Positions 1,465 to 45,431 of a stretch of 64,000 nt of DNA are shown here, piece by piece. The notes beneath the pieces were generated by a model. That model saw only the letters and a list, made by a program, of their open reading frames with translations. It was not told the DNA's origin and did not search any database. The first letter of the stretch is position 1, and the number at the start of each line of letters is the position of its first letter. A program made the translations under genes and the position numbers. The DNA is from Vicia villosa (Eukaryota; Streptophyta; Magnoliopsida; Fabales; Fabaceae): the NCBI RefSeq assembly GCF_029867415.1, contig NW_026705488.1, positions 124,001-188,000 on the forward strand, in the 5' to 3' direction.

Positions 1465-2896
1465 TGTTAGACGCTGGCCTTAGGATCTAGAGGGGGGTGA
1501 ATAGATCGTTCACAGTTTCGCGGAGTTAAATGACTTTTCAGCGGAAGTGATTCTGAATCGACTCGCGTCTATTCCGAACCACTATCGAAACGATTATATA
1601 TGTGTTTAAAAAACCAGTCAAAGACTTGAGGTAAGTGATAAGAGTATACGTTGCAGAATCAAAGCGTTTCTCTTATTGAAAATCAGATTAACTTTTTGTA
1701 TGATGGACAACGTTTGCAATGCAGTAAGAGTGATAGAAACAAATATACAAACACTTGGTGATAATGATCAAATTGAAGGTAATTCAATGTGTGGTGGATT
1801 GTGATGTTTATGTAAGTTCTTAATTCACAATCTTAACACTCGAATCGTTGATCAATTTGCTATTATAACCAAATATGAACAGAATGTAAATGAAAAAGTA
1901 AAAGCGACAAGAACACGATATTTGTTTAGGCAGTTCGTCGATCGTCCTCGCTACGACTACGTCTGCCCCCAATTCCAAATTGAAATTGGGTAATCTTTCA
2001 TTAATGTTGAAAGTAGTATATACAAAGAAGATAACAAAGCGATAAACGATAAACCAATTATGTCGATCCTTTGAATCTTCTTCCCCCTTAATCTTGAGCA
2101 ACATCAAGGTTATCCAAGAGCTTCACTTTGATTCCCTTCTGCAGTGTCTTGATTCCTTGAACTCCCCGTTCCTCAATCGTTACACTCAGCCGAATCCTCA
2201 ATGAACGCCTCTTGATAAAAACCCCCAAGAACCACCCGTCGTGGAGGACAAAACCCGCAGATTTTATTCACCAACAAACCCCACAAACCTTCACCCACTA
2301 GGAATCTTCAATTCCGTTCCATGGACGTTATCGAACTCATCACTAACCCGCAACGCAAGAATGATTATGTGTAATTATGTTGGAGATGATGAAGAACGAA
2401 GATGAGAAGCGTTTATGTATCTTTCAGTCGTTGGTGTTGTTATGAATAATGAACCTTTGATAATATATATGATTGCATAACAGTTGGAACCAAGACTAAC
2501 TGAATTTTGGACTTTCTTGATCAGTTAGGTCGACCTCTTGTAGAGGTTAGGTCGACCTAGCAGTGCTTGCTGAAGTTTGCTCCCAGTTAGGTCGACCTGT
2601 TGAAGGAGTAGGTCGACCAGAATCCTCTTCTGATGCGTTCTGGGAACATTTTCTTAGATTAGGTCGACCTAGTTGTTATGTAGGTCGACCTAGCAGCAGT
2701 ATATGTATTTTTCTTCATTTTAGGTCGACCTGGGTTGACAGTAGGTCGACCTAACTGCTGATTTTCTGTATTTTCCTTGTTCAGCTTGTGTTGAGTCGAC
2801 CTATATGCATAGTAGATCATCCTGTGCTTTGTTTGGATGCTCATTTGAGTTTGCCATAAATCAAAAAACATCTTTGAGTGTAATCTTGTATTCACA
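1465..2896 (-). repeat. 3' LTR of the SIRE-like element
   Basis: 1432 bp, nearly identical to 11988-13420. On the minus strand the order is U3 start (2896), a palindrome array (2823-2527), a TATA box (about 2470-2460, CATATATATTA), then the transcribed part. Confidence 0.92.
2527..2823. promoter_or_regulatory. Array of paired AGGTCGACCT palindromes in the copia LTR (left copy)
   Basis: Eight palindromes (seven perfect, one with an end mismatch) are centred at 2531, 2553, 2593, 2614, 2665, 2686, 2726 and 2747. Decayed copies are centred at 2797 and 2818. Successive distances are 22, 40, 21, 51, 21, 40, 21, 50 and 21 bp. The array lies immediately upstream of the TATA box on the minus strand, which suggests a promoter-proximal binding platform. 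The function is inferred. Confidence 0.8.
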
Positions 2897-3065
2897 TACT
2901 CCCCCTTTTTGATGATGGCAAACCAATAGTCAAAAGCTTTGGTAGTAAGTGATGAAGACTCAACAAGGCTCCCCCGTACATCCAGCATCTATCTCTCAAC
3001 CAAGCAATCTCTTTACAAAGCTCCCCCGTACACTCAGCATCTATTGCATCTATCTCCCCCTTTGA
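2897..3065 (-). other. Polypurine tract and three further purine tracts
   Basis: Read on the minus strand, AAAAAGGGGGAGTA directly precedes the 3' LTR and is the expected plus-strand primer. Similar tracts with GGGGGAG cores occur at about 2968-2977, 3021-3030 and 3051-3063. Only the one touching the LTR is needed. The others look like duplicates of this region. Confidence 0.7.
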
Positions 3066-3323
3066 CAACATCAAAAAGAGAAACAAGGAAACAGAGTAGG
3101 AGAGTAACAAGAGAAATAAAGAATACCGGTAGTCATAGAGATAGATAACATGTAAATGGTGAAATCATAAGAACTAAACATGTTTTAAAGAAAACCAACA
3201 ACATACATAGTAGTCCAAGAGATTAATAAAAGAAAACAAAGAGTACTACATCATATAACGTTTTTAACAAAAGGCTTAATGATATGAAATACAATGAAAT
3301 GATGATATGATAAACAATGCGTC

Positions 3324-4751
3324 CTAACGCCTGCCCCTTCTTCCTCTTCCTCTTTGAAATGTATGAGGTCGATCTTCTTCAACCTGTTCCAACAGATCCA
3401 GCACAGACATGTTGAGAGTGTTGAAGCTTTGGCTTATATTAGCATGGCGATGCAATGCCGTTTCCTCAAACTGATTTTGTCTTAGAGTGGAGTTGGAGGC
3501 AAACGTCTCAAAATCGCTTTTGTGATCTTGAACTAAGTTGTACAACGATTGATATTGTTGTTGTTGTTCGTCATAGCGATCTTGTTGGAGCTGTTGCATT
3601 GTTTGAAATTGAAGCTGTTGAGTTTCAAAGTTCTGCTGTTGTTGAAGTTGCATAGCCTCAAGCATAGATATTATGTTGGATTGATCAGGAGGAGGTGGAG
3701 CTGTGTATCCCCAAGGGATATCCTCTTGTTGTGGCGGAACATATCTCCAATTTGCATCCGTGTCATGAGCTGCATCTTCCATGGTATGATCCTCATCATT
3801 TGCTATTTCTTGATCATTTCCTTCTTCTTCATTTTCTGCAGTGTGACCAAATTCTGTAGGATCATCATAGTTGTAGATGATTTTTCCGGTCCCCTTTTGA
3901 ATGAGATAATAGGTTCTCCTATTTGGATCCCAATGATATTCCATGAGGGTTAAGGTTGTTTGGGAAAAGTCCTGGTTCTGTTTCATTGTGATGTATGATA
4001 ATCCATCGAGCTTCATGCTGAAATGGTTCACAATAGTTTGTATGATCAAGCCATAGCAAAGAGCAGTAGTCTTCTGCTTTACTTCCTCAAACTTGGCAGT
4101 TAGAAAGTGTGGCCAGTGCACGCGTGTTCTGTTTTGGATCAAGTACATCAAGACAATCTCATTCCTTTCAATTCTGGAAAATCCGCCTGCTCGTGGTCGA
4201 ATGACTCTTGAGATGACCCAATTTAGAAGCCTAGGATCTCTCTTCAGGTGACCGGCTGTTATTGTTTCATTTGGTTTGTCAAAGACGGAAGGATCTTTGA
4301 GGATAGACTTCATGTAGGCCACATGATCATAGATTCCCGATACGCCCCCGTCTTCTATACGTAATTCATCGCCTACAATGTTGAGACCAAAGATACTAAT
4401 CCAAGCACGTTTGTCAACGATATGAGATCTTGACCCCATCTTAAACCTAAAATTACAGCCTGCCTCTCTTGTGAACCCTGCATAGAATGCTCTAACAGTG
4501 TTTTCACAGTATGGTGTGGCACATTCCAAAAGGGGATGAACATTTTGATGCTCAATAAGACTCACAACTTCAGGAATATGCATATTTTTAGCAACATGTT
4601 GATTGAAAATATACTGCTTCACTACCTTCCTTTTCATTTGCCATTTTTCAAAATTATCTCTACAATCAGGGTGAACAAGGGCTACAGCACTTACCGGTTG
4701 TGAGGATGATCCAGATGCAACTTCCTTTCCCTTTCTTGATTTTGGAGGCAT
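3324..4751 (-). CDS. Accessory ORF of the SIRE-like element (475 residues, function unknown)
   Basis: An intact ORF lies between the position where pol should be and the 3' LTR, in the element's sense strand. The first 20 residues are basic and low-complexity (MPPKSRKGKE...). Residues about 25-270 form a globular, Trp/Arg/Phe-containing domain. It resembles proteins often annotated in legume genomes as putative plant transposon proteins (recognition by memory, unsearched). An acidic stretch follows (about 300-330), then a Gln-rich probable coiled coil (about 365-440), and the protein ends in RGRGRRGRR. I see no signal peptide or membrane segment, which argues against an envelope protein. Basic ends and a coiled coil would suit an oligomeric nucleic-acid-binding protein. 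A palindrome array ends 141 bp upstream of the start codon. The frame is unbroken, unlike gag and pol. Confidence 0.7.
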   Translation of the reverse strand: MPPKSRKGKEVASGSSSQPVSAVALVHPDCRDNFEKWQMKRKVVKQYIFNQHVAKNMHIPEVVSLIEHQNVHPLLECATPYCENTVRAFYAGFTREAGCNFRFKMGSRSHIVDKRAWISIFGLNIVGDELRIEDGGVSGIYDHVAYMKSILKDPSVFDKPNETITAGHLKRDPRLLNWVISRVIRPRAGGFSRIERNEIVLMYLIQNRTRVHWPHFLTAKFEEVKQKTTALCYGLIIQTIVNHFSMKLDGLSYITMKQNQDFSQTTLTLMEYHWDPNRRTYYLIQKGTGKIIYNYDDPTEFGHTAENEEEGNDQEIANDEDHTMEDAAHDTDANWRYVPPQQEDIPWGYTAPPPPDQSNIISMLEAMQLQQQQNFETQQLQFQTMQQLQQDRYDEQQQQYQSLYNLVQDHKSDFETFASNSTLRQNQFEETALHRHANISQSFNTLNMSVLDLLEQVEEDRPHTFQRGRGRRGRR

Positions 4752-4886
4752 AGTTGTTGATGATTTTGTGTGAGAAGGATGATTTTGAACAGTTTTGAGT
4801 TTGAGGAGTTAGGGTTAGCCGTACCAAATGTGATGAGAATGAGAGGGGATGAAAAGATGGAATGTTTAGAATGAATGAGAGTGGGT

Positions 4887-5092
4887 CGGGTCGACCTAAC
4901 AGACCCAAATTTGGAAAACTTAACGCAGTAGGTCGACCTAAAGTGAGGCTGGGTCGACCTAACAGAAGTAACAAAAAAAATGACCAATTTAGGTCGACCT
5001 AAATTGTGAGTAGGTCGACGCAACTGGACCTTTTTAGTTTCTGTAAAGAAACTTCTTCTGTAGGTCGACTCAAATACAGAGTAGGTCGACCT
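4887..5092. promoter_or_regulatory. Second array of paired AGGTCGACCT palindromes, upstream of the accessory ORF
   Basis: Palindromes or one- to two-base variants are centred at 4892, 4934, 4955, 4995, 5016, 5066 and 5087. Distances are 42, 21, 40, 21, 50 and 21 bp, the same geometry as in the LTR. The array lies 141 bp or more upstream of the accessory ORF start (4751, minus). I see no clear TATA box between them. Confidence 0.8.
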
Positions 5093-5724
5093 AAGTTTCC
5101 TTAAATGATAAAAATGCCTTAGAAATGTTTCTATATGATGTATTTTTGTTTTGTCATTTGCTTGAACGCCCAAACATTGTATGTTATGAATGAAAATAAT
5201 GAACACATATACATATGTATTTGAGAAGAGTAAATAAGAACACATGAAGTCACTATAAGCATGTTAATTGATAGCATATTATAGCATCAATAAAATTTTT
5301 GGAAGTGAACAATAAACATGTTACTGCTTTCTCAATATGTAGGTGTTTTGTCATCATTGTGTGGAGTCTTCTTGTTAGTGTGCCATACTCCTAGATTTGA
5401 TGATGAATTGTTTTGATGGAATGTTTCACAGGTTGATTTGCTTGATTTTTGCGAAAAACTCATCTAGTATCGATTACTTGATGTTCTCCCGGATGCGGGA
5501 CATAGTCCCAAACAATATTCTGCTAAGAATAGGTTTAAAATCTCTTTGCAATGCAACTTGCCAATTTGCACATCAAGTAATGCGTCCTATGTGTTTTTCG
5601 GGTTAACTGTATTTGTAATGTATCTTATACATTTGTGATGGCCAGGTCACCTACATTCCTCTGCCAAGTATGGTTCTTCAATCTGTCTTTATAGATGACA
5701 CACCAAGAGAGGTATGTCTTTCTT
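5093..5724. other. Non-coding interval of the SIRE-like element where pol is missing
   Basis: I find no reverse transcriptase, RNase H or integrase motif on the minus strand between the protease remnant and the accessory ORF. An intact copia element would have several kilobases of pol here, so it is deleted. Confidence 0.6.
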
Positions 5725-5784
5725 TATGTGTCTTGAGCACCAGCTGTCAAGGAACCACCACCTTTCGGCGATGTCAAGACACTT
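5725..5784 (-). pseudogene. Protease remnant of the SIRE-like element
   Basis: The minus strand reads ERWWFLDSWCSRH, matching the copia protease start (WxLDSGCSRHM type). The catalytic DSG is DSW here, and the similarity ends after about 20 residues. It is in a different frame from gag, past the gag stop codon at 5796. Confidence 0.7.
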
Positions 5785-7451
5785 TTCCTGCAAAATTAAA
5801 TTAGAGTGGAAGGTCCCCAATCTTCATTGGGTCCTGGATGGTGAGTACACAATTTGTTGCACTTAGGCAACCATTGAAATACTCCTTTAGGAACTAAAAT
5901 TCTCCTAAATTTGCATTTTTCAATGGTATGTCCCTTTTTGCAACAATAATGACAGGTAATATGATGAGAATATGGAGTTTTGCTAGTTGATACTTTTGGT
6001 ACAAAAGTGTATTTACTATATAAAGGAGTATACGATCTTTTGAACTTATTTGGATCAACCGCAAAAGTCACTTTTGGTTGTAGAGCCTTGTCTAACTTGG
6101 CTTTTAGATCTCTTACTTCTTTTTGCCAAATGTGACATGTCTCACAACCAAACCATGATGTAGGATCTATTTCAACTTTGTCCTTTTGAATGTCTAGCAT
6201 AGATTGTTTTAAAGCTTCCATATCCTTTTCGGTTTTCTCAACTTTTGATTCAAGATATGAAAATATTTTCTTATTTGAGGCCAAAAGTTTGAAAGCTTTA
6301 ATTGCATCTCTATGTAATTCTTCAAAAGCAAGTTTTAGTTGAGAATGAGATACCTTATCTACGAGTTCAGGTTTAAGATGACTTACAGCTTTCTTTTTCT
6401 TGTTTTGATGAGCCATGAAACATAGGTTTGCTGATTCTTCTTCATCGCTTGATGAGCTTTCACTAGATGAATCACTTTCCCATGCTATGTAAGCTCTTTT
6501 AGATTTGTTATGACCTTTGCTTTGGTTCTTCTCCTTTTCTTTCTTAAGGTATGGACAATCCGGTTTGTAGTGACCGGCTTTCCCACAATTGAAGCAAAGA
6601 CCTTTGATCTTTCCTTTGTTGTCGTCATCTTGTTTGAACATGTTTGATTGCTTTCTATAGTTGATCAAGCCTTTGTCGGAATGTTTTGCTCCATTTTTCT
6701 TTAGATATTTGTTGTATCTTCGCACAAACAGTCTCATTTCCTCATCATCGGAGTCTTCGTCATCACTTGTGTCACTATCCTTTGGCTCTCGTTTTGAGGT
6801 CTTGGAGCTCGAAGCTTTTAGAGCTATTGACTTCTTCTCTACCTCTTTCTCCATGTTCTTTTCTTTCTTTGTCCTTTTCTCATGCATGTCAAGGCATTTA
6901 AGGTGTTGTTCATGTTCCTCTAGTTTACCAAATAGAGTTGTGATGTCTAAAGTGTTTAGATCATTTGCTTCCTTTATTGCTGTAACTTTGGGTTGCCATT
7001 CCCTGTTCAAGCATCTTAAGATTTTGTTAGTAGCAACTGCATTGGAAACAGGTCTATCAAGTGAATTTAACCGATTTTTCAGATGAACGAATCTCTTCTG
7101 CATGTTTTCGATGGATTCACCATCTTCCATGTGGAAGAGTTCGAACTCTTGAGTTAACGTATTGATCCTAGCTAGTTTGACATCATCCGTTCCCTCGTGG
7201 GCAACTTGCAATGTGTCCCACATAGCTTTAGCTGATCTACAATGGGAAACGCGATAGTATTCATCAACTCCTAGAGCTGAGATTAGAATGTTTCTCGCTT
7301 TCCAATCGTATGCATATCTCTTTTCATCTTCAGCATCCCAAGTATTTTCTGGTTTTGGAACAACTGCACCAGCTGCATTTGTCATGGTGATCTGAAAGGG
7401 ACCATTGACAATAGCTGTCCAGATGTTCCTATCAATTGCATTGATGTGGAC

Positions 7452-8736
7452 TGTTGGAGCGGTAGAGCGGCAAGCAACAAAAGTTTTTGGAAATATTCAT
7501 CCGGGATTTATCGTGTCCACAGAGATCGGTGAGAAGAACTGCCGTTCGACTATCTCGTGTTCTAAGTTTCATGAATTGGGTGCGGAAAGTAAATGCGGGA
7601 AAAGTAAATAAAAGCAGATAAACAATCTCAATAGTCTAAGAGAAATAGTTATGGAATTGCATTTCGTTCTACCCGTCGAATACTTAAATCTGAAGATCTA
7701 TCGCTTGACACTCACAATACGCATCAACATCACCGGGCATCACTCGAGATGCCACATCGGTGCCCATGTCTGCAACACCGACGAAAGCTCAACCGTACTA
7801 TTCACATCAGCGATTTCTCCACCGACACAAACAACACGGAGGCATTAAACTCGATACCCACTACGATTGTTAGTCCTAAATCCATGTCTGCAACCCAGAA
7901 ACTAACAGCTATCATTCCTAATCAAGATCTATGGTGTCCATGTCTGCAACAACACAAATCCAGAGCATTTAAGCAAAAAGATCAAGAACAACAACAATGA
8001 TGATTTGTAAGTGAATATATAAACGATCCCAAGATCCACAAATATACATACAATAAGAGTAGAAACATACATACAACACCCACCATTGGAATGAAACAAA
8101 GGGGAGAGAGAAGATGAACCGGAAAGATCTCACCGGTACAATGAAATCGAGTCAGATCCATGATCAATCCACATGACGTCGCACCCAATGGTGTTTCCTA
8201 AGCTTCTAAACTACCAAAAAAGGATCAGAGCTCAACTTGTCAAGAAGAGGTGATAAAAAACCTAAAAAATCTGTTATTAACTATTTATACAAAACTGAGT
8301 TTCGCAGTGGGCGCGACGCGCCCTATTTCGGCGCGATGCGCCCTTTATAAATTTACTAAACCGCCCTAGAGCGCGACGCGCCCAAATCCGGCGCGACGCG
8401 CCCTAACTTCTGCCAGACTAAGCTCTTCAAACTCAAAGAGGGCGCGACGCGCCCTACAGCGCGCGAAGCGCCCTGCACCAGAACAGCAGAATTATTTCCT
8501 CAAGGCTCTCGCAGCCGTGTCTTCGACACTTTATTCCTCAAGGCTCCGAAAACGCAAGAATACCTACAAAAATACAACAAAACTATCAAACGGTATAAAA
8601 GTGTATGAAAATACATCTATTCACAAAGTATACGTATTTACACAAAAACGGGTAATTATTAAAACGGTATTAACAAAAAGCATTGATAAGTGCCACTATT
8701 TACATACACAAAATAACTACAATCTGGCACTTAACA
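7452..8736 (-). repeat. 3' LTR of the Athila-like element
   Basis: 1285 bp. On the minus strand, a GC-rich palindrome array (8472-8309) precedes a good TATA box (GTATAAATAG, around 8282-8290). Confidence 0.93.
8309..8472. promoter_or_regulatory. Array of paired GGCGCGACGCGCC palindromes in the Athila-like LTR
   Basis: Six palindromes (odd centre, A/T) are centred at 8316, 8336, 8376, 8396, 8447 and 8466. Distances are 20, 40, 20, 51 and 19 bp. The nearest centre is about 27 bp upstream of the TATA box on the minus strand. The block is strongly CG-rich in AT-rich surroundings. The same array is at 11417-11580 in the other LTR. Confidence 0.85.
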
Positions 8737-10559
8737 ACTCTCCCCAACTAGAATCTGTTTGTCCTCAAACAGGGCCAAACATTCAAAGAATCAAAAGTAA
8801 AAATCCAAAGAATCAAGAATCAACAAGATTTGGAAAAACGAAACAATTGTACGGTTCAAACAAAAACGCACAAACAAAGTAAACACTTACCACAATCCTA
8901 CAACGAACATGAAAATGAAACGAATCCTAAGTACAAAAATCATATAAAACATTCTAAAACAAAACAAGCTCAATCACGAATCACGCCTAGCAAAAACTCA
9001 TCGGTAGATGAAAAACACCGAAAGGTGAGGACTTTGAACACTCATCCAACAATCTTGCAAACAAAAGACAAAATTATGCGTTCATCTAAAAATAGTATTG
9101 AAAATGCAACGGCACGAATCACAAGGGCTTTCAAGGTTGTAATGTGGCTCGGTTAACAAACAAGTGATAAGTCCTAAAGCTAATCGAAACAAAAACTTGC
9201 CTAAACCTAAGGGAGTAATTACTTCCACAAAGTTTCAAACAATGAAATTTCAATCAAACTTCTTCTTCATCACATGTTTCACACCAAACACAATACTTAT
9301 TACCACACTCTTATTCATACTCTTTTTGTTATTTTCTTTTTCAAACTTTTTCTCTTTTTTCTTTCTTTTTCTTTTCTTTCTTTTTCACATTTTTTTTCTT
9401 TATCTTTTCTATCCACAACCGCATAACAATCACAACATAAGTAGATAAACATCCTCTCCCCAACTTGAATTCAACCACAACATAAAGTGAATACTCCCTA
9501 CTTTCTAAGGCAAGGTAAAAATCCATCTAAACATCATAATTATAGGTCAAGAAAACAAAGATAATCAAAATCCATCAAAAAGGGTGAACTATGTCTCAAG
9601 TTCAAAAACAAAATGGACAATGACAAAAAGGCTCAAAGGGGGTACGAATGGTCACACACTCACAAGGTAAAATGACATTTGGCTTATGGTAGTTGTGCTC
9701 AAAATCAAACAAGTGCCTTGATCACTTTCGTGCATTCACAAAATCGATACAAACGAAAGATTAAACATAATAATATCCAGTTAAAACAAGAATTGTCGGT
9801 CTCTCGCATATATATACAATGGAAAGCCACCTCACATTTATGGTAAAAAGGAAAAACTAATTGTGATTCAAGTCATGAGCAAGTTATGCAAAAAGAATGA
9901 GTAATATGAAATTTGTACAAATGAAAAGTCTCCTAATCATGCTATGCTATAGAAAGCGATAAACGAGTACCTTGCGGCGTACAAATTTGAACAATCATTA
10001 CCGCACAACCGGCGTGTTGAATCTATCACAATTGGAGAATTACCAAATGCTACTTCAAGCGATCGGGCCAAAATTTGAATCTAAACACAAACAAGAGAAT
10101 TAAAAAATAAAACTATAAAATACTATACTATAAAGCCTTGGTGTAAGTGGGAAAAAGGCGAGCCGAGTGACCCGTTAAAAAGAGGTCACTGGTCAAAAGC
10201 AACCCAGCGCGCGACGCACCCATGAGCGCGCGACGCGCGCTACACCAGAAAAACCAGACCAGTCTAAAAAGACAGATTTTCCAGTGAGCCACCACTTAAC
10301 ACCTACACAACTCAATTACAGAAAAACAGAAAAATAAAACCGTTGGGGTGCCTCCCAACAAGCGCTCGTTTAACGTCGTTAGCTCGACGCCTTTATTGTT
10401 TCGCGAATGGTAAGAAACTTCCTCGCGGTACGCCAATGCTTTCGCCTCAAACGCAACCTAAAGAAAACGTCATGCCCAAACACTTAACAAACGAAACTTA
10501 AAACATAAAACCATCGCAATGCGATTAATCTCAACCAATCCCCGGCAACGGCGCCATTT
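8737..10559 (-). other. Non-coding internal region of the Athila-like element
   Basis: A- and C-rich on the plus strand, with only short low-complexity ORFs. Near the primer binding site a further pair of GCGCGCGACGCGC-type palindromes is centred at 10214 and 10233, 19 bp apart. Confidence 0.7.
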
Positions 10560-11844
10560 TGTTGGAGCGGTAGAGCGGCAAGCAACAAAAGTTTTTGGAA
10601 ATATTCATCCGGGATTTATCGTGTCCACAGAGATCGGTGAGAAGAACTGCCGTTCGACTATCTCGTGTTCTAAGTTTCATGAATTGGGTGCGGAAAGTAA
10701 ATGCGGGAAAAGTAAATAAAAGCAGATAAACAATCTCAATAGTCTAAGAGAAATAGTTATGGAATTGCATTTCGTTCTACCCGTCGAATACTTAAATCTG
10801 AAGATCTATCGCTTGACACTCACAATACGCATCAACATCACCGGGCATCACTCGAGATGCCACATCGGTGCCCATGTCTGCAACACCGACGAAAGCTCAA
10901 CCGTACTATTCACATCAGCGATTTCTCCACCGACACAAACAACACGGAGGCATTAAACTCGATACCCACTACGATTGTTAGTCCTAAATCCATGTCTGCA
11001 ACCCAGAAACTAACAGCTATCATTCCTAATCAAGATCTATGGTGTCCATGTCTGCAACAACACAAATCCAGAGCATTTAAGCAAAAAGATCAAGAACAAC
11101 AACAATGATGATTTGTAAGTGAATATATAAACGATCCCAAGATCCACAAATATACATACAATAAGAGTAGAAACATACATACAACACCCACCATTGGAAT
11201 GAAACAAAGGGGAGAGAGAAGATGAACCGGAAAGATCTCACCGGTACAATGAAATCGAGTCAGATCCATGATCAATCCACATGACGTCGCACCCAATGGT
11301 GTTTCCTAAGCTTCTAAACTACCAAAAAAGGATCAGAGCTCAACTTGTCAAGAAGAGGTGATAAAAAACCTAAAAAATCTGTTATTAACTATTTATACAA
11401 AACTGAGTTTCGCAGTGGGCGCGACGCGCCCTATTTCGGCGCGATGCGCCCTTTATAAATTTACTAAACCGCCCTAGAGCGCGACGCGCCCAAATCCGGC
11501 GCGACGCGCCCTAACTTCTGCCAGACTAAGCTCTTCAAACTCAAAGAGGGCGCGACGCGCCCTACAGCGCGCGAAGCGCCCTGCACCAGAACAGCAGAAT
11601 TATTTCCTCAAGGCTCTCGCAGCCGTGTCTTCGACACTTTATTCCTCAAGGCTCCGAAAACGCAAGAATACCTACAAAAATACAACAAAACTATCAAACG
11701 GTATAAAAGTGTATGAAAATACATCTATTCACAAAGTATACGTATTTACACAAAAACGGGTAATTATTAAAACGGTATTAACAAAAAGCATTGATAAGTG
11801 CCACTATTTACATACACAAAATAACTACAATCTGGCACTTAACA
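10560..11844 (-). repeat. 5' LTR of the Athila-like element
   Basis: 1285 bp, apparently identical to 7452-8736, shifted by 3108 bp. It carries the palindrome array at 11417-11580 and the TATA box at about 11390-11398. Confidence 0.93.
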
Positions 11845-11987: not shown

Positions 11988-13420
11988 TGTTAGACGCTGG
12001 CCTTAGGATCTAGAGGGGGGGTGAATAGATCGTTCACAGTTTCGCGGAGTTAAATGACTTTTCAGCGGAAGTGATTCTGAATCGACTCGCGTCTATTCCG
12101 AACCACTATCGAAACGATTATATATGTGTTTAAAAAACCAGTCAAAGACTTGAGGTAAGTGATAAGAGTATACGTTGCAGAATCAAAGCGTTTCTCTTAT
12201 TGAAAATCAGATTAACTTTTTGTATGATGGACAACGTTTGCAATGCAGTAAGAGTGATAGAAACAAATATACAAACACTTGGTGATAATGATCAAATTGA
12301 AGGTAATTCAATGTGTGGTGGATTGTGATGTTTATGTAAGTTCTTAATTCACAATCTTAACACTCGAATCGTTGATCAATTTGCTATTATAACCAAATAT
12401 GAACAGAATGTAAATGAAAAAGTAAAAGCGACAAGAACACGATATTTGTTTAGAAAGTTCGTCGATCGTCCTCGCTACGACTACGTCTGCCCCCAATTCC
12501 AAATTGAAATTGGGTAATCTTTCATTAATGTTGAAAGTAGTATATACAAAGAAGATAACAAAGCGATAAACGATAAACCAATTATGTCGATCCTTTGAAT
12601 CTTCTTCCCCCTTAATCTTGAGCAAGATCAAGGTTATCCAAGAGCTTCACTTTGATTCCCTTCTGCAGTGTCTTGATTCCTTGAACTCCCCGTTCCTCAA
12701 TCGTTACACTCAGCCGAATCCTCAATGAACGCCTCTTGATAAAAAACCCCAAGAACCACCCGTCGTGGAGGACAAAACCCGCAGATTTTATTCACCAACA
12801 AACCCCACAAACCTTCACCCACTAGGAATCTTCAATTCCGTTCCATGGACGTTATCGAACTCATCACTAACCCGCAACGCAAGAATGATTATGTGTAATT
12901 GTGTTGGAGATGATGAAGAACGAAGATGAGAAGCGTTTATGTATCTTTCAGTCGTTGGTGTTGTTATGAATAATGAACCTTTGATAATATATATGATTGC
13001 ATAACAGTTGGAACCAAGACTAACTGAATTTTGGACTTTCTTGATCAGTTAGGTCGACCTCTTGTAGAGGTTAGGTCGACCTAGCAGTGCTTGCTGAAGT
13101 TTGCTCCCAGTTAGGTCGACCTGTTGAAGGAGTAGGTCGACCAGAATCCTCTTCTAATGCGTTCTGGGAACATTTTCTTAGATTAGGTCGACCTAGTTGT
13201 TATGTAGGTCGACCTAGCAGCAGTATATGTATTTTTCTTCATTTTAGGTCGACCTGGGTTGACAGTAGGTCGACCTAACTGCTGATTTTCTGTATTTTCC
13301 TTGTTCAGCTTGTGTTGAGTCGACCTATATGCATAGTAGATCATCCTGTGCTTTGTTTGGATGCTCATTTGAGTTTGCCATAAATCAAAAAACATCTTTG
13401 AGTGTAATCTTGTATTCACA
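11988..13420 (-). repeat. 5' LTR of the SIRE-like element
   Basis: 1433 bp, about seven differences from the left LTR, including one G in a G run and a GG/AA change near 12455. The palindrome array is repeated at 13051-13347 and the TATA box at about 12984-12994, both in minus orientation. Confidence 0.92.
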
Positions 13421-14306: not shown

Positions 14307-14308
<2 letters not shown>

Positions 14309-14401: not shown

Positions 14402-14405
<4 letters not shown>

Positions 14406-18121: not shown

Positions 18122-19441
18122 CCATGTCATCGTTTTTGGTAAACAAAATCTGCAATGAAACAATGCTGGGCCACTTCTTTTGGGCCTGTGCGCCCTTGAT
18201 TCTTCCTGCACCACCAATTTCAACTTAACACCCCCTGGTCACATATTTTCTATATTTTTTTAACATAGTTTTTTCTTATTTTTTTTGTGATAAAGAATAA
18301 ACAATAATCATACATTTTGGTTAGATTTTTAGGTAATAAAATTGTAATAAAAATCATCCTTTCTGTTAGATTTTAGGTAATTGTTGACATTAAAAAAGCT
18401 TATAAAAATAGTAGTATTTTTTAGGTTATTTTTTTTTTTTGCACTTACTTTTGACTTGTTTCTTATATGCTTGAATTGATTCTTTTATTTCTTTCGTACC
18501 ATTTCTATGTTATTTTTGTATAATTTTTGTGTGATTTTGTTACTTGTTTTTTGCCATATTTTTGGCCTACTTGTTAATACCATTTTAATGCTCCTTTTAG
18601 AATTTAGTCACCATATTAACATTAGGATTTAGACTTGTAAACAACAATAATTCTAGGCTTAGAAATTAGGCTAGTCCCCCTCTTTTCATTTCTTTTTCTT
18701 TTACAACCCTAAAACATCTAATAACTATCAAAATAAAATCCCTTTAAAAAATACAAAGAAAACACTTAAAAAACATTAATGAAAAAGTGAAAATCATTAA
18801 ATAGGGAATGGAAGCTTGAATCTCCCTTGCTTAAGGGAATCATTCGAGTGCTTGGATCTCCCTTGCTTAAGGGAACCATTCGAGCGTAAGTTCCCAATTT
18901 CTAAAAAACACCAACCAAAGAGTAACTCGAGTTTCCCTTGCTTAAGGGATTTCCTCGAAACACTCAAAATCTCTCTCTCATCTCTTTTTCTTAAGGGCAA
19001 TGTTATTTCCGCTCGTACGCATCGTAGGTCGTCCCTTATGCAAGAGCGCGAACGTTAACTCCGCCCAACTAAAAAACACAAAAACAAACAGAAAATCTTT
19101 TGCCGAGCTACGGTAACTCTGATTCCTAAAAAGGATACGTAGGCAGCGGGGTAGGGCCCGTGCGAGTATAATTCTTTTTTTCCCTACATTTTGCATTCAT
19201 TCGCATGTAGACATAGACATAGTACACACCCTTTAGATAGAAACAAACATAGGTGGATACCATCGAGTACGATGGGCGCGAGGGGTGCTAGTACCTTCCC
19301 CTTGCGTAACCGACTCCCGTACCTAGATTCTCTGGTCGCAAGACCTTGTTCTTATTCTGAGTTAGGTTTTCTGATATTCCTTTTCCTTATGGGATAAATA
19401 TATTAGTGGCGACTATGTTCATTTTTCGCGAGCGTGCGACA
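18122..19441 (+). repeat. Ogre-like 5' LTR, second part
   Basis: It starts with the duplicated CCATG and ends GCGTGCGACA, directly followed by the primer binding site. It is collinear with 32940-34253. It carries three copies of a hairpin-forming motif, TCCCTTGCTTAAGGGA or close variants, centred at about 18830, 18866 and 18941. Confidence 0.85.
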
Positions 19442-32303: not shown

Positions 32304-34253
32304 AAGCGAGGGGAATAAACAGTAATGGAATTCGAAGCCGTTACCTCTGGTATTTTCTTCTCCATTTAAGCGTCTTCAAGAATCGTCATCACCGGTAAGT
32401 TTTCTGATCGATCACTCTCGCGTATTACCTGCTTGATTCTTAGCACCATTGCGTAGAGTAAGCCTCCACAGTTATTTTCCCCATGGTCTTGATGTCTTCT
32501 CGTTCGCCGTCGCCATTTAATTTGAATTTCTAGAACCTAGGGTTTCGGAAGGGAATTCATCGATCCGGCCAAATGAAGGGTTTTCTGTGCAATCTATGGA
32601 CGTAATCTATATCGGGCGTAATTTTAGGCTAGGTTTATGTTCAGGTTTAGTTGATCGGGGGAGATTAGAGACGGCGAGGACGGCGGAGGACTCGCCAAAA
32701 ATCGTATGTAAAACGAGAGAAGTGAGTTCGTAGAAGCTGAGGAGTCACACCGTTTAACAAAACCAAAACGCACCGTTTTCTTATCTCTTTTCTTTTAGTT
32801 TTTCTTTTTTTCTTTTATTAAAAAGTGATAATAAATTTTGAATAAAAATCATGTTAAAAAACTGTAACAAAAAAAGATATCCCTTGGGCCTATGTGCTTT
32901 ACTAGTGCACCCCCCCCCCCCCCCCCCCCCCGAAGCCCATGTCATCGTTTTTGGTAAACAAAATCTGCAATGAAACAATGCTGGGCACTTCTTTTGGGCC
33001 TGTGCGCCCTTGATTCTTCCTGCACCACCAATTTCAACTTAACACCCCATGGTCACATATTTTCTATAGTTTTTTAACATAGTTTTTTCTTATTTTTTTT
33101 GTGATAAAGAATAAACAATAATCATACATTTTGGTTAGATTTTTAGGTAATAAAATTGTAATAAAAATCATCCTTTTGTTTGATTTTAGGTCATTGTTGA
33201 CATTAAAAAAGCTTATAAAAATAGTAGTATTTTTTAGGTTATTTTTTTTTGCACTTACTTTTGACTTGTTTCTTATATGCTTGAATTGATTCTTTTATTT
33301 CTTTCGTACCATTTGTATGTTATTTTTGTATAATTCTTGCGTGATTTTGTTACTTGTTTTTTGCCATATTTTTTGCCTACTTTGTTAATTCCATTTTAAT
33401 GCTCCTTTTAGAATTTAGTCACCATATTAACATTAGGATTTAGACTTGTAAACAACAATAATTCTAGGCTTAGAAATTAGGCTAGTCCCCCTCTTTTCAT
33501 TTCTTTTTCTTTTACAACACTAAAACATCTGATAACTATCAAAATAAAATCCCTTTAAAAAATACAAAGAAAACACTTAAAAAACATTAATGAAAAAGTG
33601 AAAATCATTAAATAGGGAATGGAAGCTTGAATCTCCCTTGCTTAAGGGAATCATTCGAGTGCTTGGATCTCCCTTGCTTAAGGGAACCATTCGAGCGTAA
33701 GTTCCCAATTTCTAAAAAACACCAACCAAAGAGTAACTCGAGTTTCCCTTGCTTAAGGGATTTCCTCGAAACACTCAAAATCTCTCTCTCATCTCTTTTT
33801 CTTAAGGGCAATGTTATTTACGCTCGTACGCATCGTAGGTCGTCCCTTATGCAAGAGCACGAACGTTAACTCCGCCCAACTAAAAAACACAGAAACAAAC
33901 AGAAAATCTTTTGCCGAGCTACGGTAACTCTGATTCCTAAAAAGGATACGTAGGCAGCGGGGTAGGGCCCGTGCGAGTACAACTCTTTCTTTTCCCTACA
34001 TTTTGCATTCATTCGCATGTAGACATAGACATAGTACACACCCTTTAGATAGAAACAAACATAGGTGGATACCATCGAGTATGATGGGCGCGAGGGGTGC
34101 TAGTACCTTCCCCTTGCGTAACCGACCCCCGTACCTAGATTCTCTGGTCGCAAGACCTTGTTCTTATTCTGAGTTAGGTTGTCTGATATTCCTTTCCCTT
34201 ATGGGATAAATATATTAGTGGCGACTCTGTTCATTTTTCGCGAGCGTGCGACA
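32304..34253 (+). repeat. Ogre-like 3' LTR, second part
   Basis: It resumes after the solo LTR and ends GCGTGCGACA at 34253. It is collinear with 1-403 plus 18127-19441, with a run of 22 C at 32910-32931 where the 5' copy has 6. The hairpin motif TCCCTTGCTTAAGGGA recurs at about 33634-33760. Confidence 0.85.
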
Positions 34254-34976: not shown

Positions 34977-34977
34977 T

Positions 34978-35230: not shown

Positions 35231-35236
35231 AAACTC

Positions 35237-35280
<44 letters not shown>

Positions 35281-36330: not shown

Positions 36331-36369
36331 CTGGGATGAGGACCCCGGCTCAAAATCCCAAAATACACT

Positions 36370-36441
36370 TTTGTTTTGGAGATGCATCTCCGAAAACACT
36401 TTTTTCACATTTAGAACATATTTCGAAGATACATCTCCGAA
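36370..36441. repeat. Two CGGAGATGCATCTCCG-type palindromes
   Basis: GGAGATGCATCTCC is centred at 36384, and a one-armed variant (GAAGATACATCTCC) at about 36431, 47 bp apart. They lie between the copia remnant and the gypsy LTR, and may come from a further LTR family. Confidence 0.5.
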
Positions 36442-36494
36442 AACTTCATATTTGATTTTGAATAAAATAATCCATAAAAATTATGTGTGATTAT

Positions 36495-36772
36495 TGATAA
36501 AGATGGTTCTACAACTAGTACCAAACTAGGGTTTTCACCCTTGAATAAACACAAAACAATTAAAATAAGACTTTTTGAATAATTTTCTACCTTCTTCAAA
36601 GAAGAAAGGGAACTTAAATACAAAGAGGAACCTGCTGGTTCACAAATGGGCCTAACCCAACTTTAGGGAAAAAAGACAATAAAACAGACTTAATAAAATA
36701 AAATTAAATTAATTGGGCACAAAGTCTTTCATCCATTTGGGCTGTTTCTTTTCACGAATGGGCCTGTTATCA
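36495..36772 (-). repeat. 3' LTR of the short-LTR gypsy element
   Basis: 278 bp, also encoding the C-terminal residues and stop of the upstream pol frame. The next bases inward (minus strand GGGCCCCGTAATAG) are the likely polypurine tract. Confidence 0.85.
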
Positions 36773-40603: not shown

Positions 40604-41567
40604 TTGGCAAAATGGGCTCTGTGTTAGGAACAGAATCCTCTTGGAAGTTTATTTCCTCATCATCCACCAATAATAATATAAACTTGCCAGTTGAACACTT
40701 ATGTCCCGGAATGAACTTTTCGTCACAGTTGAAACACAACCCTTGAGCGCGACGTTCTTGGAGTTGAGCGTTGGAGAGGCGTCGAATGGGTAGTTTAGTA
40801 GATTGGGTTTGATTTTGTGGTTTTTGGTTAATGGTTGCTGCTGCTGTGGGTTGAGGGGTCGTATTGGGCCGAGGGAAAGGGGTAGAAAAGGGCTTTTGGA
40901 ACTTTGGTTTGGCATCACGAATTTTTTATTCTATAAGCTTAGCTAGCCCAATTGCTTGTGAAATGGAAGTAGGTTTGTGGATGGAAATCTCATTCTGGAT
41001 TTCAGGTGTAAGGCCAGAAATGAAGCAATTCAGAATGGCATCGGGGGACAGACCAACAACCTGATTGCCTATTTTTTCAAAAGCAGCTTGGTATTCCACA
41101 ACAGAAGCTGTTTGCTTCAACTTGAACAGTTCTGCTTGGTGATTTGCGTAGGTGGATGGAACAAAACGCAGTTCTAATGCCCTTCTAAACGAAAACCAGT
41201 CCAATAATTCATTACTTTGGTGCATCCATTTAAACCAGCATAGTGCATCTCCTTTCATATAGAAAGACATCATTGCAAGTCGGTTTTCAGAAGGAAGGTT
41301 ATAAAATTCAAAAAACTGTTCTGCTTGGAATAACCATTCCAAGGGATTTGTGCCATCAAACATTGCTAATTCGAGCTTAGGTGTACGAAACGGGGGTAAT
41401 GGGGTCATTTGTGGGTAAGGGATTTGTTGTGGGAATGGAATAGAGGTTTGGGAATGAGGAGAGAAACCAGCGGTGACAAATGGGATTGTGTAAGGTGGGG
41501 ATGTAGAGAAAGGCTGGAAGGGTAGGCTGTAAGGAATAAAAGGTGGGTTAAGTTGTTGGGCTGTTGT

Positions 41568-42386
41568 TGTAACACCCGAGGCCGAAGAAGGCGAGGGGTG
41601 GTTACACTGCATGTAACACTTGAGGCCAATGAGGGCTAGGGTGGTCGCCACATCGGAATGAGAGGGATCTTGAGATCGTGTAGGTATGGGACTGCATGGT
41701 TGAAGAAAAGCTTATAAGGATTGATGGGTACTACCTATACCAACAAGATGCATCTTCTTTTCGGTAGCTCATTCCATAAGAACTCCACAGTTAAGCGTGC
41801 TTGACTTGGAGTAGTATTGGGATGGGTGACCTTCTGGGAAGTTTCCCAGAAAGCGTGCGAGTGAGGTCAAAGCATGCTGAAAAGACCCGTGTTGGTTTGT
41901 GGGGTCAGTAGATCATCCCGAAAGCAGTCTGGGGCGTTACAAATGGTATCAGAGCCAGACCTCTCCCAGTACGATGTGGTTCGAGGACGAACCATGCGGA
42001 AGCTGGTGGGCATGTAACACCCGAGGCCGAAGAAGGCGAGGGGTGGTTACACCGCATGTAACACTTGAGGCCAATGAGGGCTAGGGTGGTCGCCACATCG
42101 GAATGAGAGGGATCTTGAGATCGTGCAGGTACGGGACTGCATGGTTGAAGAAAAGCTTATAAGGATTGATGGGTACTACCTATACCAACAAGATGCATCT
42201 TCTTTTCGGTAGCTCATTCCATAAGAACTCCACAGTTAAGCGTGCTTGACTTGGAGTAGTATTGGGATGGGTGACCTTCTGGGAAGTTTCCCGGAAAGCG
42301 TGCGAGTGAGGTCAAAGCATGCTGAAAAGACCCGTGTTGGTTTGTGGGGTCAGTCGATCATCCCGAAAGCAGACTGGGGCGTTACA
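41568..42386 (+). mobile_element. Cassandra element (TRIM with 5S-rRNA-like LTRs)
   Basis: Two 374-bp LTRs (41568-41941 and 42013-42386) start TGTAACACCCGAGG and end GGGGCGTTACA. Perfect TSD GTTGT lies at 41563-41567 and 42387-42391. The 71-bp interior has the initiator-Met primer site TGGTATCAGAGCC and a purine-rich GGAAGCTGGTGGGCA. Each LTR contains 5S-like sequence with the Pol III internal control elements. About six differences separate the LTRs. The element has no coding capacity. Confidence 0.93.
41790..41850 (+). promoter_or_regulatory. 5S-rRNA-like Pol III internal promoter in Cassandra LTR 1
   Basis: AGTTAAGCGTGCTTGACTTG (A-box region) is followed by GAGTAGTATTGGGATGGGTG and ACCTTCTGGGAAGT (C-box region). 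This matches the second half of plant 5S rRNA with a few changes. It recurs in LTR 2 around 42235-42295. Confidence 0.85.
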
Positions 42387-42868
42387 GTTGTCATGTGTAG
42401 TGAGGAGGGAATTGTTGGTTGGGGGTAGGATGGGAGAAAATAGTGGAATGTCTAGTGGGTGTATAGGTAGGGGTAACCGTGTGAGGCATAGTCAAGTTCA
42501 TAGGTGAAGAGGCTAGGGTTTTAGAGATACCTGACGAAGAAGAGGTGGTTGTGTTTGCAGCAGCGGCATACTGCCCTTCACGTAGCGCAACCAGCTTGGT
42601 CAGAATGGACATCATGGAATCATAACGATTGTCCCCAACATGTTTTTCCTTGTCCATCCTTGCATTCAGCTGACCAACCTGCTGGTGCAGATCTGATGAA
42701 ACCAGCCCAAGTCTTTCATCTAACTGCTGGTTTTGGTCTTGTAGAGCATTATTAAGATGAAGTTGTGTTGTTTGAACAGCTGTTTGGACAGCTTCTTCCA
42801 CTAGTTCTTTAGAAGAGGGATTATGGAGTTTTGGGGGAGCCATGAGAGCATAGAATGAAAGCACCAAA

Positions 42869-43027
42869 TGATAAAGATGATTCGACAACTAGTACCAAAC
42901 TAGGGTTTTCACCCTTGAATAAACACAAAACAATTAAAATAAGACTTTCTGAATAATTTTCTACCTTCTTCAAAGAAGAAAGGGAACTTAAATACAAAGA
43001 GGAACCTGCTGGTTCACAAATGGGCCT
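42869..43027 (-). repeat. 5' LTR of the gypsy element, first part
   Basis: The piece runs to GGCCT (43023-43027), where the Tekay-like tandem begins. The remainder is 57293-57410. The minus strand TTTGGTGCTTTCAT just inside is the likely primer binding site. Confidence 0.85.
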
Positions 43028-45431
43028 TGTAACACCCCATAATTTCAGTTTATTAATTTAATTTGGATTTAAATTAAATAATTGGAATTTTAGTAATTTT
43101 ATTTGGAATTATTTGGAAAATGGTGAAATATTGGCATTTGGGCCTAGAGTGGTGGTTAGCAGAAGAGGGGGTGTTGACTAAGCAAACCCATTATAATATT
43201 TTATTTTATTTTTCATAAAATAAAGGAATTGGAAAAAAAAAAGAAGAAGAAGCAGTAGAAGCAGATTTTGGAAAAGGAGAACACGTGAAAGTGAGAAGAG
43301 CCAAAGGGGGAGAAGAACTTCGAAGATTCGACTCTGAGGTAAGGGGGGATTCTTCGGGTTAGTATTCCTTATGCGATTGTAGGTGGTATGATTGATTAGG
43401 ATTGTGGTCTAGTTCAATCGTATGTGTCGGGTTTGGGAATTTTGTTAGGTTTTGATAATCTAGTATGAATTGACATGATTCTGTTGATACTTGTGATATA
43501 TGATGTTAATACATGTCAATAACTTGTTTGAAATGTGTAATTGTGTGAAAATCAATGATAATTGTGTGTATGTTCGTATGTACCTGAAATTGGGGAAATG
43601 GGATATGGTAAATGCTGTCAAAACGGTGATTTTTGCTGTGCAGGTACGTAGGAACCGGTTCCCATGTGGGACGAACCGGTTCCCCCTTGTAAAAACAGAG
43701 AAATATGGATTCTGGGTAGCTGGGAACCGGTTCCCATGTAGGGACAACCCGGTTCCCCATAGTAAAAACCAGAGACGAGACTTTGAAGCTGCCAGGAACC
43801 GGTTCCCACGTAGGGACAACCCCGTTCCTGCAGCATTTTTCTAAAAATGTTTTATCTTTGAAAACTCATAACTTTTGATCTGAGTATCCGATTTATGTGC
43901 CGTTTTGGGCGTTGCGAAGCTAATGAGATGCTTTATCTGATGAATTGATAAAATGGGCAATAGCCAAATTTACTTTTAAACTCGATTTAATTATTAATGA
44001 ATTGAAAGATAGTATATGTATATGTGCTTATATATATGACTATTGATGCATGTATTTGTGTTGGTGATGAGATTGTGATATCCATTGAGTGATGTTAGTA
44101 TATAACATGTCGTAGATGATATATGTTTTGTGATTATGTTGTTGGGTTGCTTTGACAATTTGTTACATTGTGTGCAATGATGATGGATATAACGATGTTT
44201 GATCGTGGTGATGATTGGTGATTGTGAATATTAATATATTGTTAATATTAATATGTTGGTTATGGTGGCAATTAACATTAATATGATGTGTATGTTAATG
44301 TGAGGATGTAGTGTACATATGTGAATGATTGTATATGTATGATGATGATGATTGATGATTGTGAATATTAATATGTTGTTAATATTAATATGTTGGCTAT
44401 GGTGGCAATTAACATTAATATGATGTGTATGTTAATTGTGATGATGTGATGTATGAATGTGAATGATTGAATGATGCTTATACATGTACATACTTGTTGT
44501 GACCTTATTGGTAAGAGGTGTTAAGCGATGTTAAGCATCGGAATGATGATGATGTATGAAGATGTAAGTATGTGTCATGTGTGCATTATTCATAAATCAT
44601 TTGCATTGGAAGGCTAATTCCCATTGTGTGGAGATTAGCGGGAAGTCATCGTGTGCCCATGTGGGGTGTGAGCGATGAGGCAGTAGTCGTGTGCCCATGT
44701 GGGGTGTGAGCGACTAGAGGGCAGTATCAAAGAGAGAAGTCTTGTGATATGATTCACGAATTTTGGTACCACATGCATAGTGTCAGTTGCATCATATGCA
44801 TTGGTGATAACATGATTGGATGAGATCCAGTGTTATGCCTTGGTGTGTTTACATGATTGATGTGTTGAGAAGATGTTGTTAATATGACTTGATCCTTGAT
44901 GAAATTGATGAGTTGTGGGCCGATGGTCAATATTGTTGGATGATGCTTGCTTGTTGTAATAATTCCGATTATATGTATGATTGAGTGGATGATAATTACT
45001 ATGAGATTTTATTGCTTATGATTGCATAATGCTTATTAATTCGAATGAAACTCACCCTTACTTTGATGATTTCAGATTAAGGATGTAGCGGCGTCTTGAT
45101 TGGGTGAAGATAGCTTGTAAGCTAGCCCGTAGTTCGTGTCGAGTCATGCTCTGATTGTAACACTGGGGAACGATAGTTTAGAGACGAATTATTATGTCAG
45201 TCTTGTTGTTTTATGATCGTTTTAGAATAACTTGCATGGATAATGAATATGCAATGTTATGGATTATTGTCCGCTGTGTTGAACATGAATTGTAATTATG
45301 TTAAGTGGTTCCTCGTGTAGCATGACAAATGACTATGGTATTTTTATGTTAAAGAAGTTGTGACATCCTTGTATTTCATGTTTACTCTGAATATTATTCT
45401 ATTTTCCGCGGGGGTTTAGAAGGGTGTTACA
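43028..45431 (+). repeat. Tekay-like LTR 1
   Basis: 2404 bp, one A shorter in the A run near 43234 than LTR 2 and LTR 3. Contains a palindrome array (43651-43829) and simple repeats of GATGATGTG and TTAATATTAATATG type around 44160-44470. Confidence 0.93.
43651..43829. promoter_or_regulatory. Array of paired GGAACCGGTTCC palindromes in the Tekay-like LTR
   Basis: Palindromes centre on CpG at 43656, 43677, 43728, 43750, 43800 and 43823 (the fourth and last with one extra or changed base). Distances are 21, 51, 22, 50 and 23 bp. The arrays recur at 49579-49757 and 55507-55685. Unlike the other two families, no clear TATA box follows directly. A possible TATA box lies about 200 bp downstream (44027-44038). 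Confidence 0.85.

What the first reader, a model, noticed from the sequence alone, without database searches (positions are those of the whole stretch)
2527..43829. Three unrelated LTR families share one geometry of paired palindromes
Seen directly: the SIRE-like copia LTR uses AGGTCGACCT, the Athila-like LTR GGCGCGACGCGCC and the Tekay-like LTR GGAACCGGTTCC. Centre-to-centre distances are 22, 40, 21, 51, 21, 40, 21, 50 (copia); 20, 40, 20, 51, 19 (Athila-like); 21, 51, 22, 50, 23 (Tekay-like). All are near 2, 4 or 5 turns of about 10.2 bp, so every site would face the same side of the helix, and sites always come in pairs two turns apart. The sequences differ while the spacing is conserved. 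That argues against common descent of the arrays and for a shared mechanism. Candidates are a dimeric or multimeric protein with family-specific recognition, nucleosome-surface phasing, or hairpin formation within pairs. I do not know of a named feature that matches this.
Basis: partly seen in the sequence, partly recalled or inferred. Interest (0 to 1): 0.92.

Follow-up and report, generated by a model that had tools for sequence, protein, structure and literature searches.

The report
Helically spaced paired palindromes in LTRs
Unrelated jumping genes in one plant genome carry clusters of short mirror-image DNA words whose spacing, about two, four or five turns of the double helix, stays the same while the words change, which suggests control switches read by paired proteins.

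Summary
The three arrays lie where stated, with the stated spacing, in LTRs of a Sirevirus, an Athila-like and a Tekay-like element. A second Sirevirus array lies upstream of an ENV-position ORF.

The window's own 2.03-Gb assembly could be searched in part. Listed Sirevirus pair distances were 20-22 or 39-42 bp in 53 of 53, Athila ones 19-21 or 40-41 in 99 of 100. A random piece gave a further palindrome with gaps 19, 53, 20, 52.

Two parts of the reading change. Palindromes are not family-specific: Tekay-type LTRs with one promoter-side flank carry three palindrome classes, one shared with the copia element. And five other dyad clusters miss the geometry.

The copia array is the known Sirevirus 'repeated motif' (PMC2829016); its spacing, and such arrays in gypsy LTRs, turned up in none of my searches.

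Best reading: promoter-upstream arrays for dimeric DNA-binding proteins, selected on helical spacing. A/T steps fall opposite the palindromes; RNA hairpins get no covariation support. The protein is unknown.

The parts
1465..2896 (-). Sirevirus 3' LTR (1432 bp, TG...CA)
   Evidence: self-BLAST 99.5% to 11988-13420; LTR ends, PPT beside it and ATGGG flank on both sides of the element
2527..2823 (-). palindrome array of the 3' LTR: 9 AGGTCGACCT-type sites plus a degenerate tenth; sense gaps 21,50,21,40,21,51,21,40,22
11988..13420 (-). Sirevirus 5' LTR
13051..13347 (-). same array in the 5' LTR
4888..5092 (-). second Sirevirus array upstream of the ENV-position ORF; sense gaps 21,50,21,40,21,42
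   Evidence: five gaps equal the LTR array while spacers share 38 of 93 bases
3324..4808 (-). 494-aa ORF in the ENV position; no Pfam match, no PDB sequence match
5796..7496 (-). copia gag (Retrotran_gag_2, zinc knuckle)
7452..8736 (-). Athila-like 3' LTR
   Evidence: 100% identical to 10560-11844
8310..8472 (-). Athila-like array, GGCGCGACGCGCC type; sense gaps 19,51,20,40,20; TATAAAT 27 bp beyond the last centre
10560..11844 (-). Athila-like 5' LTR with its array at 11418-11580; PBS TGGCGCCGTTGCC at 10544
10208..10239 (-). extra palindrome pair, 19 bp apart, in the 5' internal part of the Athila-like element
43027..45431 (+). Tekay-like LTR 1
   Evidence: PBS TGGTATCAGAGC at 45436
43651..43828 (+). 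Tekay-like array, GGAACCGGTTCC type; gaps 21,51,22,50,22; 72-bp tandem unit
48954..51359 (+). Tekay-like LTR 2, array 49579-49756
54882..57287 (+). Tekay-like LTR 3, array 55507-55684

Best explanation
The arrays are cis-regulatory (enhancer-type) DNA elements upstream of the LTR promoter. Each palindrome is the site of a dimeric host DNA-binding protein. Two sites two turns apart form a cooperative pair; pairs are held four or five turns apart so that all bound dimers face one side of the DNA, and the spacers are phased (A/T steps opposite the palindromes) so that the DNA can bend round a protein core or nucleosome. The geometry is what selection keeps; the palindrome can be exchanged across an array, presumably when the element comes to use another member of the protein family. 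Shown here: geometry, its recurrence with five kinds of palindrome, one-turn gap differences between related arrays, A/T antiphase, and position upstream of a TATA-like box in the window's three families. Inferred: protein binding, dimers, cooperativity, host origin, wrapping, enhancer activity.
For: Phase concentration in the window arrays, 0 of 5000 in each of two nulls. Genome-wide pairs: GGTCGACCT-N4..34-GGTCGACC 27161 forward places against 2 for the reversed control; the 100 rows listed are 53 places, all at 20-22 or 39-42 in a searched range of 13-43. Athila pairs: 206 forward and 187 reverse places against 0; 99 of 100 listed at 19-21 or 40-41, one at 44, range 15-45. Related Sirevirus LTR L137: same pairs, but two gaps are 50 instead of 40, one turn; other copies have 51 where the window has 40. 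Two Sirevirus arrays share five gaps exactly while spacers are 41% identical. Tekay-type LTRs: three palindrome classes at pair spacing 21-23 and gaps mostly 50-53. New palindrome in a random piece, L168: 19,53,20,52. 90 of 95 gaps in 17 chosen arrays fall in 19-23, 39-42 or 50-53. A/T steps in antiphase at 10.2 bp: rotation null P 0.0003 for four window arrays together; 12 of 13 further arrays negative, 0 of 1000 rotations reach their sum. TATA-like boxes lie downstream of the three LTR arrays.
Against: No binding, expression or chromatin data. One genome only; copies within a family are not independent, and listed places come from the first chromosomes. Exceptions: gaps 29, 33, 46, 59, 73; a 44; an apparent 38 in L149 read by eye; 63 and 123 among GGAACCGGTTCC distances. 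Dyad clusters L133, L140, L155, L163 and an Ogre-like LTR are off the lattice. Best period ranges from 10.05 to 10.5. Several Tekay-type arrays show poor phase at 10.2 (R 0.07-0.48), fitting better at 10.4. Athila shows no A/T antiphase (P 0.52), and no single array of the further 13 reaches P 0.05 at 10.2. Spacers of the two Sirevirus arrays look related only in register (P 0.0014), not by gapped local alignment (P 0.32), so their common origin is likely, not certain. The Tekay TATA-like box is about 200 bp away.
Confidence: 0.6

Rival explanations
1. RNA hairpins: paired palindromes fold into stem-loops in the LTR transcript, serving the element's RNA or feeding small-RNA silencing, as proposed for maize Sireviruses.
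For: Array RNAs fold far better than dinucleotide shuffles (z -8.6, -5.4, -5.7); nine of ten single-pair pieces too (z -2.8 to -5.9; the tenth, cut short, -0.7). Palindromic LTR regions of maize Sireviruses draw small RNAs (passages of PMC10760457, citing Bousios 2016, which is not held and was not read).
Against: Any repeated palindrome folds. In 12 arrays that I chose (the window Tekay array not among them) partner sites are no more complementary than swapped ones (mean difference -0.03, 0 of 12 positive). Hairpins do not explain gaps of about 40 or 51 but hardly any between, nor A/T antiphase.
Confidence: 0.13
2. By-product of tandem duplication: a pair-containing unit of about 61, 72 or 133 bp multiplied and only palindromes stayed recognisable.
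For: The Tekay array is a 72-bp tandem repeat; L144 shows a duplicated block; some Sirevirus arrays seem to differ by a whole unit.
Against: Explains regularity within an array, not the same distances in arrays that do not align and have different palindromes, nor the one-turn gap differences.
Confidence: 0.12
3. Nucleosome rotational positioning alone: GC-rich palindromes and A/T-rich spacers set a wrapped phase, with no factor at the palindromes.
For: A/T antiphase near 10.2-10.5 bp; 10.2-bp lattice in Sirevirus arrays.
Against: Does not need near-exact palindromes of 10-16 bp, nor the same palindrome at every site of an array, nor sharing of GTCGACC between copia and gypsy.
Confidence: 0.1
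4. Element-encoded binding protein specific to each family.
For: Some plant transposons encode such anti-silencing proteins (recalled, VANC of VANDAL elements).
Against: Eight of the 21 ORFs of 60 aa or more in the Tekay-like and Athila-like internal parts were scanned, and none has a Pfam match better than E 0.08; GTCGACC occurs in copia and gypsy. Autonomous relatives could still supply a protein.
Confidence: 0.05

Closest known systems
Sirevirus repeated motif (RM) boxes, Bousios et al. 2010, PMC2829016 (read: sections 9 and 10 and search passages)
   Same: palindromic motif, at least 8 copies, in the upper half of the LTR upstream of a TATA box, with a second cluster upstream of ENV; Vitis motif CGGTCGACCG is close to AGGTCGACCT
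   Different: the paper calls RMs Sirevirus-specific against classic Ty1/copia elements, and the parts read give no spacing between motifs; here Tekay- and Athila-type gypsy LTRs have such arrays too, on a common helical spacing; the CGG-CCG core is absent
Palindrome clusters of maize Sirevirus LTRs as small-RNA hotspots (Bousios 2016, not read; cited in passages of PMC10760457 and PMC5311732)
   Same: same place in the LTR, same kind of array
   Different: there read as RNA structure; here spacing and lack of pair covariation point to DNA
EBNA1 sites of the EBV dyad symmetry element (passages of PMC3798644)
   Same: works-alike: two sets of tandem sites for a dimeric protein, 21 bp apart centre to centre
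   Different: viral origin, known protein; no relation by descent
Tnt1 LTR cis-repeats (named in passages of PMC2829016)
   Same: symmetrical repeated regulatory boxes in a plant LTR
   Different: few copies; no such spacing known to me (recalled)

Membership tests
Sirevirus RM boxes | palindromic motif in high copy number (at least 8 per element) | tested here: met
   9-10 sites in each LTR and 7 in the linker
Sirevirus RM boxes | CGG-CCG core (12 of 13 published motifs) | tested here: not met
   core is AGG-CCT; nearest published is Vitis CGGTCGACCG
Sirevirus RM boxes | upper half of the LTR, upstream of a TATA box | tested here: met
   LTR positions about 78-365 of 1432, TATATAT at 428; starts nearer the LTR edge than the published 200-400
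Sirevirus RM boxes | extra cluster upstream of the ENV gene | tested here: met
   4888-5092, upstream of ORF 3324-4808; that the ORF is ENV rests on position only
Sirevirus RM boxes | clusters form CpG islands | tested here: not met
   LTR array GC 0.45, CpG observed/expected 0.71, below the rest of the LTR (1.02); ENV-side array GC 0.43, 0.96 against 0.44 around it
Sirevirus genus | several AGGGGGAG PPTs near the 3' LTR | tested here: met
   2899 and 3054 on the minus strand
Sirevirus genus | PBS TATCAGAGC at the 5' LTR junction | tested here: not met
   absent on the minus strand; a related but changed stretch sits there
Athila lineage | tRNA-Asp-type PBS (recalled) | tested here: met
   TGGCGCCGTTGCC at 10544, minus strand
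Athila lineage | Athila reverse transcriptase | tested here: inconclusive
   1.8-kb internal part; two of nine listed ORFs scanned, no coding match
Tekay lineage | chromodomain and Tekay reverse transcriptase | tested here: inconclusive
   3.5-kb internal part; six of twelve listed ORFs scanned, no coding match; name rests on LTR and PBS form (recalled)

The most novel reading that the evidence does not exclude
A spacing code: plant LTR retrotransposons of both superfamilies have converged on one architecture (palindromic dimer sites paired two helical turns apart, pairs four or five turns apart, A/T steps opposite), in which helical spacing is the conserved signal and the palindrome is exchanged through a whole array at once. 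A family of paralogous host dimeric proteins, or one complex with variable dimers, reads it on bent or nucleosomal DNA.
Probability: 0.4. Interest if true: 0.9.

Novelty: new variant of a known kind. Interest (0 to 1): 0.76.

Why it matters
LTR retrotransposons make up much of many plant genomes, yet how their promoters are read and silenced is mostly unknown. A geometry shared by copia and gypsy elements, kept while the sequence turns over, gives a concrete handle: one probe design, with paired sites at 21 bp and a control shifted by half a turn, could catch the unknown protein. It would also explain why motif comparison by sequence found no common factor (as PMC2829016 reports for the Sirevirus motifs), and would add a case in which spacing rather than sequence carries the regulatory information.

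Tried and rejected
So no cross-species test was possible. PMC searches for the palindromes as strings (20 of 62 papers listed, titles on other subjects) and for prior art (listings and abstract beginnings, with passages of seven papers) gave the Sirevirus papers but nothing that I saw on the spacing or on like arrays in gypsy LTRs; preprints and most subscription papers are not held.

Rejected: common descent of whole arrays between families (spacer alignments at shuffle level; likewise three Tekay-type palindrome classes, P 0.12-0.77, and Sirevirus against Tekay-GTCGAC, P 0.043 in one of two orientations). Rejected as main cause: RNA hairpins within pairs. Kept as a limit: L133, L140, L155, L163 and the Ogre-like LTR show that not every dyad cluster follows the geometry. 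A stricter array detector found only the Sirevirus LTR and Athila arrays and nothing in the other pieces; a first dyad search had a letter filter that hid Athila and Ogre, mended.

Planned but not done: distance lists for the 44-74 range and for CCGCTTAGCGG and GTAACCGGTTAC pairs, because the genome search did not complete.

Rows dropped: the tally uses 17 arrays that I chose to avoid near-duplicates; left out were L126, L129, L141-L143, L146, L148, L151, L152 and the other 24 of L169-L196 (all printed).
Full report
What is there. The window belongs to a 2.03-Gb assembly in which contigs C1-C7 are 138-252 Mb long; with its retroelements this means a plant (inference); the species was not established. 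Self-comparison and motif searches show a Sirevirus-type copia element on the minus strand (LTRs 1465-2896 and 11988-13420), an Athila-like element inside it (LTRs 7452-8736 and 10560-11844, minus strand) and a Tekay-like element on the plus strand with three LTRs and two internal parts (43027-57287). Lineage names for the two gypsy-type elements rest on LTR and PBS form, partly recalled; 8 of the 21 ORFs of 60 aa or more listed for their internal parts were scanned, without a coding match.

Check of the observation. Exact and near matches give, in the sense of each element: Sirevirus LTR 21,50,21,40,21,51,21,40,22 (the first gap uses a degenerate site); Sirevirus linker 21,50,21,40,21,42; Athila 19,51,20,40,20; Tekay 21,51,22,50,22. 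Among perfect palindromes of 10-13 bp, two-letter words left out, only these three occur at least 4 times in 64 kb; dyad clusters number 20 (several per array) against 0 in each of 20 block shuffles. Phase concentration at a common period, best 10.2 bp, was never reached in 5000 draws with random gaps, nor in 5000 draws that keep the pairs and vary only the gaps. The Athila gap series is as close to the Sirevirus series as observed in 1 of 100000 random series, 833 of 100000 if pairs are kept, and 1092 of 200000 if pairs are kept and the promoter end is anchored. So pairing is firm, and the 40/51 pattern in Athila alone is good but not overwhelming.

Is it descent? Between families the spacers do not align above shuffle level (one of 12 comparisons at P 0.047). 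Within families there is descent: Tekay is a 72-bp tandem unit. The two Sirevirus arrays share 38 of 93 spacer bases in register against 25.9 expected (P 0.0014), though gapped local alignment of the same spacers is at shuffle level (P 0.32), and the two halves of the LTR array are not clearly alike (P 0.18). If they are related, as I think, spacers have diverged to 41% identity while all five gaps stayed identical.

Other members in the same genome. GGAACCGGTTCC occurs 13494 times against 49 for its reversed control; the 30 adjacent distances under 400 bp among the 50 listed sites were 73 (19), 72 (8), 63, 123 and 144. GGTCGACC pairs: 27161 forward places against 2; the 53 listed places were all at 20-22 or 39-42, none at 13-19, 23-38 or 43. 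Athila pairs: 206 and 187 places on the two strands against 0; listed distances 19 (1), 20 (59), 21 (23), 40 (4), 41 (12), 44 (1). Listed places are the first on C1 (and C2 for Athila), and copies are related, so these are not independent trials. A related Sirevirus LTR from a random piece, L137, has ten sites with 22,50,21,51,22,50,21,50,21: against the window's array two gaps are 50 instead of 40, one helical turn, and the rest are equal within 1 bp. Other copies have 51 where the window has 40.

Palindromes differ, spacing is kept. Tekay-type LTRs were found by a promoter-side flank (TCATAACTTTTGATC.G....TCCGATT; 241 forward and 283 reverse places). Of 28 such LTRs read (8 as returned, 20 chosen by me from the 100 listed places to cover flank variants; not a random sample, and several are LTR pairs of one element), 7 carry GGAACCGGTTCC, 4 TGTAACCGGTTACA and 17 GTCGAC-type palindromes, the last also the palindrome of the copia element. 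Pair spacing is 21-23; between-pair gaps are mostly 50-53, with 33 and 42 in L193 and 75 in L187; 13 of the 28 begin with three called sites instead of two. L136, from a random piece, adds ATGTAACCGGTTACAT with gaps 46,21,51,21.

Search without regard to spacing. In 132.5 kb of pieces taken by coordinate (11 of 10 kb, 15 of 1.5 kb), pairs of similar palindromes within 80 bp were sought. Hits came from L136, L137, L155, L163 and L168; shuffles gave none. L136, L137 and L168 (CCGCTTAGCGG, gaps 19,53,20,52) follow the geometry; L155 (69,41,47) and L163 (22 sites in a tandem-like stretch, gaps 26-58) do not. An earlier dyad search on the 110 kb also gave L133 (45-bp tandem repeat) and L140 (155,106), both off the lattice. 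So 3 of 7 clusters follow it. In the window the Ogre-like LTR (36, 75) does not. Over 17 chosen arrays 90 of 95 gaps lie in 19-23, 39-42 or 50-53; the exceptions are 29, 33, 46, 59 and 73. In L149 a degenerate site read by eye would turn the 59 into 21 and 38, still off.

Bending signal. A/T dinucleotide steps in the spacers, palindromes excluded, fall opposite the palindromes at 10.2 bp: in four window arrays P 0.0003 against rotation of each spacer (single arrays 0.002, 0.027, 0.52 for Athila, 0.038). A first version of this test with a permutation null also showed an excess at 9 bp, which is why I changed to rotation. In 13 further arrays 12 are negative and the sum is below all 1000 rotations at 10.2; P 0.001 at 10.4, 0.002 at 10.5, 0.93 at 9.5, 0.51 at 11; several of these arrays are related. 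Best common period of these 13 is 10.5, against 10.05-10.35 in the window, so I do not read 10.2 as proof of nucleosomal DNA.

RNA or DNA? The array RNAs fold strongly, as any repeated palindromes must. If pairing within pairs were selected, partner sites should match each other better than sites swapped between pairs; in the 12 arrays tested they do not (the window Tekay and the TGTAACC arrays were not among them).

Position. Sirevirus and Athila arrays end 63 and 27 bp upstream of a TATA-like box, the Tekay array about 200 bp. Together with the second Sirevirus array upstream of the ENV-position ORF, this is the layout of the Sirevirus repeated motif of PMC2829016, whose authors suggested regulation and asked for experiments. 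Two of its features are not met here: the CGG-CCG core and the CpG island.

Mechanism and its limits. The simplest account is a dimeric DNA-binding protein at each palindrome, cooperating in pairs two turns apart on one face of bent DNA. EBNA1 sites at 21 bp are a works-alike (PMC3798644), not a relative. Because GTCGACC serves both copia and gypsy elements, the protein is probably the host's. Binding, identity of the protein and effect on transcription are untested.

Noticed in passing
window 43027-57287: Three Tekay-like LTRs and two internal parts in a row at a period of about 5,928 bp, over 99.9% identical, inside a small gypsy LTR (36495-36772 matches 42869-43027 plus 57288-57410).
   Followed up: partly
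G000:C1:114604803-114620411: Six Athila-type array pairs spaced about 3.1 kb, which looks like a similar LTR train.
   Followed up: no
window 41568-42386: Two 374-bp repeats (98.4%) with 71 bp between and a Met-type PBS at 41944, like a TRIM element, overlapping the gag ORF of a gypsy element.
   Followed up: no
window 18122-19441 and 32937-34253: Ogre-like LTR pair (name recalled from its form) with three CCCTTGCTTAAGGG dyads at 36 and 75 bp, off the lattice.
   Followed up: partly
window 2900-7496: The Sirevirus copy has gag and an ENV-position ORF but no long ORF with a pol domain between them; probably non-autonomous.
   Followed up: partly
L163:677-1480: 22 copies of TCAACTCTGGGTTGA (up to 3 mismatches) at irregular 26-58 bp spacing.
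   Followed up: partly
L155:1181-1338: GGAGATGCATCTCC-type palindromes at 69, 41, 47 bp, with other GGAA...TTCC dyads nearby.
   Followed up: no
L168:283-427: CCGCTTAGCGG palindromes at 19, 53, 20, 52 bp, family unknown.
   Followed up: partly
L133:4095-4322: 45-bp tandem repeat carrying an ATCTT/AAGAT dyad, six sites.
   Followed up: no
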